Positions 59,374 to 64,000 of a stretch of DNA of 64,000 bases are shown here, piece after piece. Under the pieces are notes generated by a model that did no database searches, was not told where the DNA came from, and worked only from the letters and a program-made list of their open reading frames with translations. Source of the stretch: Hyphococcus flavus (lineage in GTDB: Bacteria > Pseudomonadota > Alphaproteobacteria > Caulobacterales > Parvularculaceae); assembly GCF_028748065.1 (NCBI RefSeq), contig NZ_CP118166.1, positions 1-64,000 on the forward strand, in the 5' to 3' direction. The number at the start of each line of letters is the position of its first letter. Positions within the stretch are counted from its first letter, which is position 1. Made by a program: the position numbers and the translations under genes.

Positions 59374-59450
59374 GTCCCCGTAGCTCAGCAGGATAGAGCA
59401 CCAGATTCCTAATCTGGGGGCCACAGGTTCGAATCCTGTCGGGGACGCCA
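59374..59450 (+). tRNA. tRNA-Arg (CCT)
   Basis: A 77-base cloverleaf with acceptor GTCCCCG/CGGGGAC, discriminator G and encoded CCA. The D-arm is GTAGCTCAGCAGGATAGAGC, the anticodon loop TTCCTAA, and the T-arm TTCGAAT. The anticodon CCT reads AGG. Ten bases separate its 3' end from the stop of the convergent cupin-like gene. Confidence 0.96.
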
Positions 59451-59459
59451 AATAACCAC

Positions 59460-60725
59460 TCAAGCAGCGCGAGGAGCCATAATAGGTTGATAGATCGGCG
59501 CTTGCGTCAGCGCCGTGTAAAGCGTCTTGATGTTGTTAATATACTCATCTATCCGCGGATCCTGAGCATGATTTTCATGCACTTGTTTGCATATAGTCTC
59601 GATGTCGTGCTGGCCTGCAATCAATTTCAGGAAGAAATCACGAAAAGGCTGCGGTGTTTGCTCGCCTGTGTTTGGGTCTTTATTCAGTAAAAGGAGACCC
59701 ATCCAGTCAGCAATGAGAGCCGACGCATCATTATCAGCGCCAAGTTTCTGGGCGACAATATCGATAAGCTCTTCGATATTATCGCAGACATAGAGCGCGC
59801 TCACAAAAAATTTCAATTCCGGGTCGAGTTCCCCTTTATCCATTCGCTCGCGAAGCATGACTGTCATTTCATGCCGTGGAACGCTTATCAGCGAACGGCC
59901 AAGCAACTCCCACTCTTCGCCATACCGTTCCGCCATGATCGCCTGCGCGTGTTGCGGAATAGCGTGCCCTCGCTCGGCCAGTGTTCGAAAAAGGTAGTAT
60001 GTCTCCGGCAAGTTCGCCGTATTGGAAAACCCGGCTATCTCATCTGCAAACTTCAGTTCATCAACATAAAGCAACCATTCGAACGCGCGATAGCGCTCCA
60101 TCATGTTGCCATTGCTCATCTCACTCGGCTGGGAAATTGTCTCATAGGCGGCATGTGGCCGGTCAAACGTGAGTGTCAAACGCGAGCTCGGCGCTACGCT
60201 GTCCCTGCGAATGCTTACAGCAGCGCCCAATTTTCCGCCGTATGCCAGCGCATGGATAGTTCCCCCCGGCCCCGCTTCAACCTTTTGCACAAAACCGGCG
60301 CGCTGAATGCTGAGCGTCTCTGTTTTTACCTGACCGATACGAAAACTATGAGAAACATGGCGCGCCGTTTCAAAGCAATACGTTTTGTGCAGCGATTCAC
60401 CAGAGAGAACCTGATACGCTCCGTCCCATTCATGACTATGCGGCGCAGCGACGCGTGAATTCCAAAAGTGAAAAAATATCAGAAAATTTTCATACGATCC
60501 GCCGATAAATATACTCGGCGCGCCATGCGCTCTTGAAAGGCTTGCGCGCGCGCCTCTACGATTACAGAAATGCCGCAGAATATCTTCCGGTGACGTACGT
60601 TCATGAAATCCGATATTTTCGAGCGCTTGTACAGCACAGCCCGAAAAGTCCGTATTGCTGTATTTTGCTACAGCCCACTCTTTTTCCGTTTCTGCAGCCA
60701 GCTCGTCTATTAACGTATCCACCAA
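59460..60725 (-). CDS. Cupin-like 421-residue protein of peptide cassette
   Basis: No ATG opens this frame; a TTG at 60725 or GTG at 60722 follows a GGAG site. About residues 60-165 look cupin-like: IFIGGSYENFLIFFHFWNS, APHSHEWDGAYQVLSGESLH (HxH with adjacent Glu) and GTIHALAYGGKLGAAVSIRR (second His). This would bind Fe(II) or another metal. The C-terminal ~210 residues are helical (RYRAFEWLLYVDELKFADEI; FVSALYVCDNIEELIDIVAQ) and match nothing I know. It lies 87 bases downstream of the repeat-peptide gene in the same direction. A modifying enzyme or binding partner for that peptide is a reasonable inference. Confidence 0.7.
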   Translation of the reverse strand: MVDTLIDELAAETEKEWAVAKYSNTDFSGCAVQALENIGFHERTSPEDILRHFCNRRGARASLSRAHGAPSIFIGGSYENFLIFFHFWNSRVAAPHSHEWDGAYQVLSGESLHKTYCFETARHVSHSFRIGQVKTETLSIQRAGFVQKVEAGPGGTIHALAYGGKLGAAVSIRRDSVAPSSRLTLTFDRPHAAYETISQPSEMSNGNMMERYRAFEWLLYVDELKFADEIAGFSNTANLPETYYLFRTLAERGHAIPQHAQAIMAERYGEEWELLGRSLISVPRHEMTVMLRERMDKGELDPELKFFVSALYVCDNIEELIDIVAQKLGADNDASALIADWMGLLLLNKDPNTGEQTPQPFRDFFLKLIAGQHDIETICKQVHENHAQDPRIDEYINNIKTLYTALTQAPIYQPIMAPRAA

Positions 60726-60750
60726 CAGGCTCCATTCACGCGTGAAGAAT

Positions 60751-60778
60751 AGGAGGAAAGGGTGCGGCCTTTCCTCCT
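60751..60778 (-). promoter_or_regulatory. Hairpin between peptide gene and cupin-like gene
   Basis: Perfect 11-bp arms AGGAGGAAAGG and CCTTTCCTCCT with a six-base loop. It lies 34 bases after the peptide stop and 25 bases before the start of the cupin-like gene. On the minus strand it is not followed by a T run, so it is more likely an RNA-stabilising or attenuating hairpin that raises peptide over enzyme expression than a full terminator. Confidence 0.68.
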
Positions 60779-60812
60779 GAGCCTTCAGAATTTAAAAATC
60801 CTGATGATAAAT

Positions 60813-60947
60813 TTACGCGTATTCAAAGCTCGTGGAGCCGACTTGTGGTGCTGCAAAGTCGCACGATTGAGCGCTATCTGCGTATTCGAAGCTTGTTGAA
60901 CCAACATTTGTGGAACCGCTGAAAAGCAGCGAAACTAGGTTGATCAT
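60813..60947 (-). CDS. 44-residue repeat peptide, candidate RiPP/secreted-peptide precursor
   Basis: The ATG at 60947 follows GGAGG by five bases. The peptide starts MINLVSLLFSGSTN, a mildly hydrophobic leader-like part. It then carries VGSTSFEYA at residues 15-23, DSAQSCDFAAPQ as a linker with one Cys (residue 29), and VGSTSFEYA again at residues 36-44, ending at the C-terminus. It is the first gene of an operon with the cupin-like protein and diverges from an ABC exporter. A short coding gene with duplicated core-like motifs beside an exporter is typical of modified-peptide precursors. I know of no family with this motif. Confidence 0.75.
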   Translation of the reverse strand: MINLVSLLFSGSTNVGSTSFEYADSAQSCDFAAPQVGSTSFEYA

Positions 60948-61293
60948 TAAATCCTCCGTTTGTTGTTGGGAATGTCTAAGGCTCCTGGCATCAAGATAAA
61001 ATCTGCCCTTTTCAAAACCTTACGATTCGTACTATCTATCATTATACATGACCAAGTCAATAGGCTAAAGTGCACATAACGAGTATAGCCAAATATTGTT
61101 TACGCCTACCACCAGTGCGCTTCGCGACTTCCGAGCGGCACGCGTGTAACGATATTTTGATTATACGAATTGCAATTTCAGGACATTTCATAAGCAGGCG
61201 GAACTTCAGTCAGGTTTTTCGTTAGATGTTTCATTTTCCTGACATCGACTGACGAGAGCTCAGCATTCCGGCTGGCAGAAAAAGGCGAAAAGT
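60948..61293. other. Divergent intergenic region, peptide gene and ABC exporter
   Basis: These 346 bases are A/T-rich compared with flanking genes. TATAAT (61041-61046, minus strand) lies 94 bases upstream of the peptide start. TTGACT (61055-61060, minus strand) lies only eight bases further up, so they are not a standard promoter pair. Nothing coding was recognised. Both promoters, and possibly a shared regulator site, must be here. Confidence 0.55.
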
Positions 61294-63102
61294 ATGACTG
61301 TTCATCAAAGGGGGCGCCCGCAAGGCGATAATATAAAATCGGTTCAGTCGCTCTATCAGTTTTTCAAGCCATACAAACGCCTGATCGTATTCACGCTATT
61401 GCTCGTACTTCTTGCTGCAGTTTTCCCACTACTTGTGCCGCTTGCTGTCAGATTTTTTGTCGATTGCGCGCTTACCCCCTCTACGACCGCTGAGGCCTGC
61501 CGGCTTTACCCTGGCGGCCCAATCCAAACGCCGCAGTCCTTGTTGATGATCATATTCGGTGTCGCCGTTGTCACCGGCGCAGTCATGGCGGCCCGCATCT
61601 ATGTTGTGGAAAAAGCGGGCGCCAAGATAGCGCTCGGCCTACGCGACAAAACCTTCACCCACGTCATTGGGCTGCAACGCAGCTTCTATGATCGTTCTAA
61701 CCCAGGCGAATTGCTTTCACGCATAATCGTTGACCCAGGCGGTGTTCAGGTGGTGATAGTCAACGCTATCGCCGGAGCAGCGGGCAGCATTATTTTGTTT
61801 ACTCTCGCTGTCCTCTTGATGCTCATTACCCATTTGCAACTCGCCACGCTGGCTTTAGCTACAGCCCCAGTAATCTTGTTGCCCGTCATCATACTTGGCA
61901 AGCCGTTTCGAGACTTGGCCCGCGAAGCACAAAACATGGCGGCCGAGGCAAGCCGTATCGCCAGTGAAAACCTGAACACAATGGATGTCGTGCGTTCATT
62001 CGCGGCAGAAAATACCGCACAACGAAATTTCCGAAACGTACTCAACGCAACATATAAACTGACTTTAAAAAGAGGGGCGCTAAACGCCTGGATGAATGCC
62101 GTAGCACGGCCCATTTTCTTTGGTTGGGTAATCGGTCTCTTGTGGTTCGGGTTTTCACTAATAGAACAAGGTAAGTTAACGCCCGGCCTACTCGCTCAGT
62201 TCGCAATCCTCGCTGTTATGGCCGGAAGCGCTGCCGCTTCACTAACCAATGTCTGGGCTGAACTACTCCGTCTTGCCGGCGCTACGGAACGACTTACAGA
62301 GTTGTTAAGCGAACAGAACGACATCAAGCCGCCAAATAAACCGCATTCTCTCCCAGCTACCGTAACAGGCGCTATCACTTTCCAGAACGTTATATTTCAT
62401 TACCCCTCTCGGCCAGACCGGACTGTCTTTGATCAACTATCGCTCGAGATAAAAGCTGGCGAAACTCTCGCCATTGTGGGGCCCTCGGGAGCAGGCAAAA
62501 GCACGTTGTTTCATCTACTCTTACGCTTTTATGATCCGGTGAGCGGCGTCATTACATTGGACGGGATCGACCTTCGCCATTTCGACCCTGGCGCGTTGAG
62601 AAAGCAGTTTGCTGTAGTTCAGCAAAACGCTCCGCTTTTTTCAGGCAGCGCTTACGAAAATATTCGCTACGGTCGCCCTGACGCCAGCGATAGCGACGTT
62701 ATCGCAGCCGCGAAAGCCGCTATAGCGCATGATTTTATTGAAGCCCTGCCCCAAGGATACCGGACTAATCTCGGCGCCATGGCCAGCAATCTTTCAGGCG
62801 GACAAAAACAGAGAATCGCAATTGCAAGGGCTCTCATTTGCGACGCTCCTATCGTACTCCTTGATGAAGCCACAAGCGCGATAGATTCCGAAAGCGAAGC
62901 GGCATTTCAAAAAGCATTTGAAACGTTGCAAGAAAACAAAACCACCCTAGCCATCGCTCATAAGCTTTCCACAATCCAGAATGCAGACAGAATTATTGTT
63001 CTAGAGCATGGCGCCGTCGTGGATAGCGGTGCACACAAAACGCTTCTGCAACGAAAGGGGCTATACGCCAAAATGGTCGAGGCGCAGCTTTTAAAGCCCT
63101 GA
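61294..63102 (+). CDS. ABC exporter, MsbA-type (TMD-NBD fusion)
   Basis: A 602-residue half-transporter. Six TM segments occupy about residues 28-330. The nucleotide-binding domain has Walker A IVGPSGAGKSTLFHLLLRFY (about 391-410), Q-loop VVQQNAPLFSG, signature NLSGGQKQRIAIARALICDA (near 505-524), Walker B IVLLDEATSAIDSESEA and H-loop IAHKLST. No N-terminal peptidase domain (C39) is present, so any leader must be removed by another enzyme or not at all. Type B exporters of this form carry lipids, drugs or peptides. Divergence from the repeat-peptide gene suggests it exports that product. Confidence 0.87.
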   Translation: MTVHQRGRPQGDNIKSVQSLYQFFKPYKRLIVFTLLLVLLAAVFPLLVPLAVRFFVDCALTPSTTAEACRLYPGGPIQTPQSLLMIIFGVAVVTGAVMAARIYVVEKAGAKIALGLRDKTFTHVIGLQRSFYDRSNPGELLSRIIVDPGGVQVVIVNAIAGAAGSIILFTLAVLLMLITHLQLATLALATAPVILLPVIILGKPFRDLAREAQNMAAEASRIASENLNTMDVVRSFAAENTAQRNFRNVLNATYKLTLKRGALNAWMNAVARPIFFGWVIGLLWFGFSLIEQGKLTPGLLAQFAILAVMAGSAAASLTNVWAELLRLAGATERLTELLSEQNDIKPPNKPHSLPATVTGAITFQNVIFHYPSRPDRTVFDQLSLEIKAGETLAIVGPSGAGKSTLFHLLLRFYDPVSGVITLDGIDLRHFDPGALRKQFAVVQQNAPLFSGSAYENIRYGRPDASDSDVIAAAKAAIAHDFIEALPQGYRTNLGAMASNLSGGQKQRIAIARALICDAPIVLLDEATSAIDSESEAAFQKAFETLQENKTTLAIAHKLSTIQNADRIIVLEHGAVVDSGAHKTLLQRKGLYAKMVEAQLLKP

Positions 63103-63177: not shown

Positions 63178-63376
63178 ATGCGTTTTCTAGAAACGCACGC
63201 CGCCTTGCTATCGATAACCTCAGCTTTGCTATTTCTAATCCCTATTGCTTTTTTTAGGCGGTATCGCGCTGATCGCATTTTTCTGGTCCGTAAAATCTGG
63301 TCAATGTGACGACAAAGACAGCGCCGCTGAACAGGTTCTGTTGGACGACGGTCTGGATGAAGACCGAAACGCTTAG
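63178..63376 (+). pseudogene. ccoS: cbb3-oxidase assembly protein CcoS, frameshifted at T7
   Basis: The ATG at 63178 starts MRFLETHAALLSITSALLFL, ending in IPIAFF at a run of seven T (63249-63255). From there frame 0 becomes RRYRADRIFLVRKIWSM and stops. In the +1 frame the protein continues GGIALIAFFWSVKSGQCDDK ... VLLDD, an exact CcoS/FixS pattern. With six T the reading would be IPIAFLGGIALIAFFW, a continuous CcoS. It is either a sequencing/assembly error or a true inactivating slip. The N-terminus is longer than usual, so the start may be later. No other cco genes are in view. Confidence 0.78.
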
Positions 63377-63434: not shown

Positions 63435-64000
63435 ATGCCGACTTTGCATGACATTGAAACTCCTGCCCTTATCCTTGATGAAGATAGGATGATGCGGAAT
63501 ATAGCCCGAATGCGGAAACGCTTTTCTGGTATCGAGGGCGTATCATTTCGTCCTCACCTGAAAACCGCCAAGTCCATTGATATTGCAAGGCGTATTTTCC
63601 CGGATGGTCCTGGAGCAATTACAGTTTCCACCTTGCTTGAAGCGGAGCATTTTGCTGAAGCAGGGTTCAAAGATATTCTTTACGCTGTTGCTCTGTCGCC
63701 AGACAAGCTGCCAAGAGTTCAAAAAATAAGATCGTCTGGCGTAGACCTGTGCGTGATAGTGGACAGCGCGGAAGCTGTTCATCATATGCAAGATCATTTT
63801 TCACAAGCGCTCACCGGCGTACCGTTTCTTATTGAAATCGATTGTGATGGATGCCGTGCCGGCGTGCCCCATAGGGACGGCAAAAGCCTGTTGGCAATTG
63901 CAGATTGTCTTACCAATGCGGGCGCCGAACTACGCGGCGTGATGACCCATGCCGGCGGATCTTATCTTGCAACGTCATCTGCTGAAATTGAACGTACTGC
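63435..64000 (+). CDS. DSD1-family PLP enzyme, 3' end outside window
   Basis: The ATG at 63435 gives MPTLHDIETPALILDEDRMM and an open frame of 188 codons to the window end. SFRPHLKTAKSIDIARRIF (about 37-55) contains the PLP-binding Lys of the alanine-racemase-like fold type III D-threonine aldolase/D-serine dehydratase group (RPHxKT), followed by IEIDCDGCRAGVP and MTHAGGSYLA. It acts on a D-amino acid. No clear link to the peptide cassette is shown; position downstream of the exporter makes it a weak candidate. Partial. Confidence 0.87.
   Translation, partial: MPTLHDIETPALILDEDRMMRNIARMRKRFSGIEGVSFRPHLKTAKSIDIARRIFPDGPGAITVSTLLEAEHFAEAGFKDILYAVALSPDKLPRVQKIRSSGVDLCVIVDSAEAVHHMQDHFSQALTGVPFLIEIDCDGCRAGVPHRDGKSLLAIADCLTNAGAELRGVMTHAGGSYLATSSAEIERT

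What the first reader, a model, noticed from the sequence alone, without database searches (positions are those of the whole stretch)
59460..63102. Unrecognised peptide cassette: repeat peptide, cupin-like protein, ABC exporter
The 44-codon gene with a strong ribosome binding site, the cupin-like gene downstream and the divergent MsbA-type exporter form a compact set with no known family name. Short peptide plus possible metalloenzyme plus exporter is the gene logic of modified secreted peptides. What is seen: the gene arrangement, the duplicated motif and the exporter motifs. What is inferred: modification, export, and any signalling or antibiotic activity. Lack of a C39 peptidase, YcaO, lanthipeptide synthetase or radical-SAM gene nearby means it does not fit standard RiPP classes.
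Basis: partly seen in the sequence, partly recalled or inferred. Interest (0 to 1): 0.9.

Follow-up and report, generated by a model that had tools for sequence, protein, structure and literature searches.

The report
Peptide cassette with cysteine-oxidase-like enzyme
A small gene set, probably acquired from elsewhere, encodes a short repeated peptide, an unnamed enzyme shaped like proteins that oxidise cysteine, and a pump; two relatives of the enzyme sit among genes for other kinds of modified peptide, which hints at an undescribed way of decorating peptides.

Summary
The 44-codon gene has a GGAGG ribosome site and two VGSTSFEYA copies whose six DNA differences are all silent third-position changes. 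A 421-codon gene follows behind an 11-bp hairpin; an MsbA-type exporter is divergent. The set lies beside a tRNA-Arg gene, in a slot whose content varies within the genus. The peptide is an orphan, and the trio was seen nowhere else.

The "cupin-like" protein belongs to a family without Pfam or NCBIfam name, mostly Verrucomicrobiota. Three histidines (HxH...H) and an arginine are invariant in 82 of 82 rows. Models of two members match thiol dioxygenases (CDO, ADO, PCO) in 48 of 50 and 50 of 50 listed PDB hits. Their Ser-His-Tyr triad is missing.

Of 82 other loci, two lie in modified-peptide clusters: one beside a class III lanthipeptide synthetase (the only one over cut-off in 239 genomes of the order), one in a lasso-like cluster.

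Best reading: a minimal RiPP-type cassette with a thiol-dioxygenase-fold tailoring enzyme. Oxidation of the peptide's single cysteine is inferred. Against it: most family members showed no peptide cluster.

The parts
59374..59450 (+). tRNA-Arg (CCT), border of the variable slot
   Evidence: ARAGORN; stretch with the neighbouring gene matched in 27 of 28 same-genus genomes, some only by tRNA genes
59460..60725 (-). 421-codon gene of the 3-His cupin, thiol-dioxygenase-fold enzyme (start TTG 60725 or GTG 60722)
60751..60778 (-). perfect 11-bp hairpin with 6-nt loop between peptide and enzyme genes; no T-run after it
   Evidence: z -4.18, 0 of 200 shuffles as low
60813..60947 (-). 44-aa repeat peptide gene, candidate precursor
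60816..60842 (-). second VGSTSFEYA copy (codons 36-44)
60852..60878 (-). DSAQSCDFA (codons 24-32), a looser repeat unit by eye, with the only cysteine
60879..60905 (-). first VGSTSFEYA copy (codons 15-23)
60953..60957 (-). GGAGG ribosome binding site of the peptide gene
61294..63102 (+). 602-aa MsbA-type ABC exporter without C39 peptidase

Best explanation
A minimal, probably horizontally acquired modified-peptide (RiPP-type) cassette. The 44-aa gene is a precursor: a short hydrophobic start, then repeat units (VGSTSFEYA, DSAQSCDFA, VGSTSFEYA). The next gene encodes a 3-His cupin enzyme of thiol-dioxygenase fold; its helical C-terminal half may bind the peptide. It oxidises the precursor, most likely at its single cysteine (Cys29), to a sulfinic acid or a related form. 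The divergent MsbA-type pump exports the product; cleavage, if any, is by an unlinked peptidase. The hairpin may keep precursor mRNA in excess. Shown: the genes, selection on the repeat, the three-histidine motif, the predicted fold, two relatives in RiPP clusters. Inferred: that the enzyme acts on this peptide (about 0.55), at the cysteine (about 0.3), that the pump exports it (about 0.5). Biological role unknown.
For: Silent-only differences between repeat copies. Adjacent same-strand peptide and enzyme genes, 87 nt apart, with a strong hairpin. HxH...H and Arg invariant in 82 of 82 rows, no Glu ligand (Gly at that place in 82 of 82). Model pLDDT 89.2: 48 of 50 listed PDB matches are thiol dioxygenases; a stand-alone relative's model, pLDDT 91.9, gives 50 of 50. 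A relative in G120 lies 62 bp from a LanKC gene over its cut-off with a precursor-like 77-aa ORF, and LanKC over cut-off was in 1 of 239 genomes of the order, that one. Another relative closes a lasso-like cluster in L095. The peptide has exactly one Cys.
Against: Of 82 other family loci, 80 gave no match to four RiPP query proteins, though many contigs are short and other RiPP enzymes were not tested. The peptide is an orphan. The Ser-His-Tyr triad of MDO/CDO-type enzymes is absent (Arg in place of His in 82 of 82). Sequence searches do not link the family to CDO or ADO; the link is by predicted fold, with modest E-values, and the PDB hits are many copies of a few proteins. The exporter belongs to a family common in the order (30 of 30 genomes matched). 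The tree puts the RiPP-linked members on long, unsure branches.
Confidence: 0.4

Rival explanations
1. Same cassette, other chemistry: the enzyme is a 3-His cupin that hydroxylates, decarboxylates or otherwise alters repeat residues (for example Glu-Tyr or Asp-Phe), the invariant Arg holding a carboxylate.
For: The repeats conserve Glu-Tyr-Ala while Cys occurs once. The triad is missing and an Arg is invariant. A cupin-like enzyme, PbsQ, hydroxylates ornithine in a RiPP (PMC12257519, passages). SbzM, a cupin acting on cysteine, does more than dioxygenation (PMC6331615, passages).
Against: Nearest folds are thiol dioxygenases in both models.
Confidence: 0.15
2. Chance neighbours in a variable tRNA slot: the enzyme oxidises a small thiol or serves an unrelated task, as its stand-alone relatives may, and the peptide and pump are separate genes.
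For: Most relatives show no peptide cluster. The slot after the tRNA holds varied genes in the genus. The trio was not seen elsewhere.
Against: Two relatives lie in RiPP clusters of different classes, one beside the only LanKC over cut-off in 239 genomes. Peptide and enzyme are adjacent on one strand with a hairpin between.
Confidence: 0.28
3. An unmodified secreted peptide (bacteriocin or signal) with its pump; the enzyme gives self-protection or regulation.
For: Peptide and pump are divergent neighbours; acidic residues 4, basic 0.
Against: No double-glycine leader by eye and no C39 domain; the enzyme's relatives lie in modification clusters.
Confidence: 0.1
4. Oxygen-linked turnover: the enzyme oxidises a cysteine of the peptide as ADO and PCO do with N-terminal cysteines, marking it for degradation rather than building a product.
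For: ADO and PCO are among the nearest folds and oxidise N-terminal cysteines of proteins (abstracts of PMC8503633, PMC11406360 and PMC12630348 as listed).
Against: The cysteine is internal in the encoded peptide; a pump gene is beside it; relatives lie in RiPP clusters.
Confidence: 0.07

Closest known systems
Thiol dioxygenases (ADO, PCO, CDO, mercaptopropionate and mercaptosuccinate dioxygenases)
   Same: Predicted cupin barrel; HxH...H motif without Glu ligand; nearest PDB folds in two models.
   Different: A helical C-terminal half of about 200 residues; no Ser-His-Tyr triad; no detectable sequence match; activity unknown.
PbsQ, cupin-like hydroxylase of the biphenomycin-like RiPP cluster (PMC12257519)
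   Same: A cupin-fold enzyme acting on a ribosomal peptide (passages).
   Different: Described there as related to a JmjC protein; works with MNIO, arginase and B12 radical-SAM enzymes, none of which was noted in the window cassette.
Class III lanthipeptide clusters (LanKC)
   Same: A relative of the enzyme lies beside one in G120.
   Different: The window genome has no LanKC over the cut-off.
Lasso peptide clusters
   Same: A relative lies in a B1/B2/cyclase-like/kinase-like cluster in L095; a pump without peptidase domain is also usual there (recalled).
   Different: The window genome has no lasso B2 match.

Membership tests
Thiol dioxygenase superfamily (CDO/ADO/PCO/MDO) | Cupin barrel closest to known thiol dioxygenases | tested here: met
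   48 of 50 and 50 of 50 listed PDB hits, counting chains titled only YubC, recalled as B. subtilis CDO; prediction only
Thiol dioxygenase superfamily (CDO/ADO/PCO/MDO) | 3-His metal site, strictly conserved (PMC8503633, passage) | tested here: met
   HxH and third His in 82 of 82 rows; metal binding itself not tested
Thiol dioxygenase superfamily (CDO/ADO/PCO/MDO) | Ser-His-Tyr triad of CDO/MDO (PMC10966181, abstract; spacing recalled) | tested here: not met
   Arg in place of His in 82 of 82; Ser in 6 of 82
Thiol dioxygenase superfamily (CDO/ADO/PCO/MDO) | Sequence match to a known family model | tested here: not met
   No such match for the window protein or six relatives
Thiol dioxygenase superfamily (CDO/ADO/PCO/MDO) | O2-dependent oxidation of a thiol | not testable with these tools
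   needs an assay
RiPP biosynthetic cassette | Translated short precursor gene beside a modifying-enzyme gene | tested here: inconclusive
   Precursor-like gene with selection on its repeat; that the neighbour modifies it is inferred
RiPP biosynthetic cassette | Enzyme family found in known RiPP clusters | tested here: inconclusive
   2 of 82 other loci (G120, L095) with four query proteins
RiPP biosynthetic cassette | Class-defining enzyme of a known RiPP class | tested here: not met
   No lasso B2 in the genome, no LanKC over cut-off; other classes not searched genome-wide
RiPP biosynthetic cassette | PqqD-like recognition domain in the cassette | tested here: not met
   No such Pfam match in the three cassette proteins
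Lasso peptide cluster | B2 (Transglut_core3) leader peptidase | tested here: not met
   0 matches in the window genome
Peptidase-containing bacteriocin exporters | N-terminal C39 peptidase | tested here: not met
   No C39 in the exporter's Pfam list

The most novel reading that the evidence does not exclude
An undescribed kind of ribosomal peptide product defined by a thiol-dioxygenase-fold enzyme that makes peptidyl cysteine sulfinic acid or a related oxidised residue, recruited separately into lanthipeptide, lasso-like and stand-alone peptide cassettes.
Probability: 0.25. Interest if true: 0.82.

Novelty: new variant of a known kind. Interest (0 to 1): 0.6.

Why it matters
If right, a broad unnamed enzyme family gains a first functional lead as a peptide-tailoring enzyme, and a new handle for finding modified peptides that lack any recognised RiPP enzyme. 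No case of a thiol dioxygenase tailoring a RiPP appeared in the rows listed by my searches; those lists were capped except, and the library holds only open-licence papers.

Tried and rejected
Lasso or class III lanthipeptide core genes in the window genome: none. Peptide relatives: 8 of 60 genomes matched at E up to 10, the best other than itself at E 0.26; none in plasmids. Enzyme relatives in plasmids: none with four queries; in viral contigs 49 pattern matches, none confirmed. First public genome scan with the single protein: none confirmed. Wider draws: 2 of 60 relatives; 1 of 385 of the class, the window itself; 2 of 398 of the phylum, the window and one weak partial match in G786 that was not followed up; 0 of 368 in the class of G786, a search without positive control; 1 of 29 in the genus of G120, itself. 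Small repeat-bearing ORFs beside 80 relatives: 13 rows, all with 4-residue repeats, judged chance. Lasso precursor in L095: not identified. Repeats flanking the cassette: no exact match of the tRNA stretch over 12 nt. Promoter and terminator scans: 10 against 4.2 and 9 against 5.3 in shuffles; above the mean but consensus only, not used. One origin of the RiPP-linked members: the tree forces three placements, but all three are very long branches. Five exporter relatives (L150-L154) have no peptide-enzyme pair beside them by eye. A family-wide neighbour of the enzyme: none; the largest neighbour groups are in 10 and 7 of 80 loci. Viral fold library: one match under 0.001, unnamed; two matches named as cysteine dioxygenases just above that.

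Rows dropped: one search kept 80 of 110 relatives. The tree and one search used 82 rows: 79 of these 80 (L059 too short), the window, G120 and G169; the G120 row lacks its first four codons. Alignments A1, A2, A3, A5 hold 7, 15, 45 and 41 hand-picked rows; A4 was made and not used.
Full report
1. What is there. The window is the first 64 kb of a 3.47 Mb single-contig genome. On the minus strand lie a 44-aa ORF (60813-60947) and a 421-codon ORF (59460-60725); on the plus strand a 602-aa ABC exporter (61294-63102). GGAGG lies 5 nt before the peptide's ATG. The peptide holds VGSTSFEYA at residues 15-23 and 36-44. The copies differ at 6 of 27 nucleotides, each in a third codon position and silent; of 1,000,000 random sets of six substitutions a fraction 3.9e-5 was all silent. 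That is good evidence for a translated peptide with selection on the repeat. A looser unit, DSAQSCDFA, sits between them and holds the only cysteine; there is no Lys or Arg. Calling it a third unit is my reading.

2. The 87 nt between peptide and enzyme genes hold a perfect 11-bp stem (60751-60761 with 60768-60778). The stretch folds at -36.9 kcal/mol against a mean of -23.2 for shuffles (z -4.18, 0 of 200 as low). No T-run follows. A role in keeping precursor mRNA in excess is inference.

3. Setting. A tRNA-Arg gene (59374-59450) ends 9 nt before the enzyme ORF. A stretch with the start of the alpha-2-macroglobulin-like gene (name recalled) and the tRNA matched 27 of 28 same-genus genomes, the window's own included, some only through tRNA genes. 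Of 30 loci compared, only the window's own held the enzyme and peptide; none held the exporter, the window's own locus ending before it. These loci reach at most about 1.5 kb past the match. In the 14 loci printed the ORFs after the tRNA vary, with a few pairs alike by eye and an integrase-like one in L113. In G012 (L115) the methyltransferase gene that follows the window's set lies directly beyond the tRNA, so about 5 kb (enzyme, peptide, exporter, BhcC-like gene) is extra in the window genome. G+C of the cassette genes is 0.48-0.52 against 0.59 for the gene to the left and 0.57 for the window, but the genes to the right are also near 0.51. Horizontal gain fits and is not proved.

4. The enzyme family. 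Pfam and NCBIfam gave no meaningful match, nor did PDB sequences. The window protein found 7 of 398 genomes of its order, itself included: five of one genus, G120 and itself. A profile found 110 relatives in public genome contigs, 80 kept, mostly Verrucomicrobiota, with Acidobacteriota, Planctomycetota and a Legionella record. In 82 aligned rows HxH, the third His, a Trp, Gly-Ala after the HxH and an Arg 15 residues after the third His are invariant. The AlphaFold2 model of the window protein (pLDDT 89.2) shows strands over residues 69-193 and helices over 204-414 (numbering of the 419-residue query). Of the 50 PDB matches listed, 48 are thiol dioxygenases, human ADO and plant PCO2 first; the others are auxin-binding protein and D-lyxose isomerase. 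A model of the stand-alone relative L017 (pLDDT 91.9) gives 50 of 50. I count chains titled only YubC as CDO from recall, and many hits are repeats of a few proteins. E-values run from 9.9e-6 to 5.7e-4 and from 2.7e-7 to 5.8e-5, TM-scores on the target from 0.40 to 0.67, so this is kinship of fold, not proof of reaction. The 3-His site, described as strictly conserved in thiol dioxygenases (PMC8503633, passage), is met; the Ser-His-Tyr triad (PMC10966181, abstract) is not.

5. Neighbourhoods. There are 83 distinct loci: 80 contigs, the window, G120 and G169. With four RiPP queries (LanKC, lasso B2, Asn synthetase, PqqD) only G120 and L095 matched, each its own genes (87 loci with duplicates). 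Other RiPP enzymes were not tested this way and many contigs are short. In G120 the enzyme gene is 62 bp from a convergent LanKC gene scoring 576.5 against a cut-off of 575, with RamC_N, kinase and LANC-like domains; a 77-aa ORF ending EPSSSSCSC precedes LanKC. LanKC over cut-off was in 1 of 239 genomes of the order, G120; the next match had 81.8 bits. In L095 the enzyme gene follows PqqD (Pfam over cut-off), lasso B2 (61.7 bits, cut-off 33), an HPr-kinase-like gene (26.3, under 33.3), a lasso-cyclase-like Asn synthetase (286.2, under 525) and an ATP-grasp gene; no precursor was found. Five Hyphobacterium-type loci lie between an M28-like peptidase gene and a typA-like gene (names recalled). 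Verrucomicrobiota members lie in several unrelated contexts. Exporter-like matches occurred in 6 of the 80 contig loci; the fullest (L062) is 2 kb from the enzyme gene.

6. Tree. The window, G120 and L095 are three long branches at separate places; starred branches force three changes. This fits separate, fast-evolving recruitments, but the program warns that long branches make placement unsure.

7. Mechanism. I favour a RiPP-type cassette whose thiol-dioxygenase-fold enzyme oxidises the peptide, most simply at Cys29, and whose pump carries the product out. Best carried by the data: the peptide is real, and this enzyme family is sometimes tied to ribosomal peptide pathways. Substrate, site and product are inference. 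Strongest results against: the majority of members without a peptide cluster, the orphan peptide, the missing triad, and an exporter of a common family (30 of 30 genomes matched, best relative 45% identical).

8. Literature. Searches joining thiol or cysteine dioxygenase, sulfinic acid or cupin with RiPP terms gave no such case in the rows listed (several lists were capped). Only two papers hold both 'cysteine dioxygenase' and the RiPP phrase: PMC6331615, of which I saw passages (SbzM, a cupin acting on free cysteine), and PMC12763843, seen in the listing only. I saw passages of PMC12257519 (PbsQ), PMC10783134, PMC9426513 and PMC8503633, and the outline and passages of the lasso review PMC9266682, whose text holds neither 'cupin' nor 'dioxygenase'. 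Cupin enzymes in RiPP clusters are therefore known; this family in them was not found.

Noticed in passing
window 63178-63376 (+): The 43-aa ORF at 63245 matches FixS/CcoS (cbb3 oxidase maturation), 49.8 bits from profile position 10 on; the missing start seems to lie in another frame just upstream, so it may be a broken gene.
   Followed up: partly
window 63435-64000 and beyond: A BhcC-like type III PLP enzyme gene (Ala_racemase_N plus D-ser_dehydrat) follows the exporter on the same strand, in the same extra stretch.
   Followed up: partly
window about 1-29000: A run of mostly minus-strand ORFs looks by eye like a tailed prophage (tape-measure, capsid and terminase-like proteins); not searched.
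   Followed up: no
L013:4195-8388: A class III lanthipeptide cluster with a 77-aa precursor-like ORF ending EPSSSSCSC, the only LanKC over cut-off in 239 genomes of the order.
   Followed up: partly
L095:4589-11191: A lasso-like cluster with PqqD, B2, HPr-kinase-like, Asn-synthetase, ATP-grasp and cupin genes and no precursor found.
   Followed up: partly
L026, L034, L036, L041, L053, L069, L083: In seven Verrucomicrobiota contigs the enzyme gene is followed by the same three gene families (by eye a START-like protein, a permease and DnaG primase), a stable but clade-limited context.
   Followed up: no
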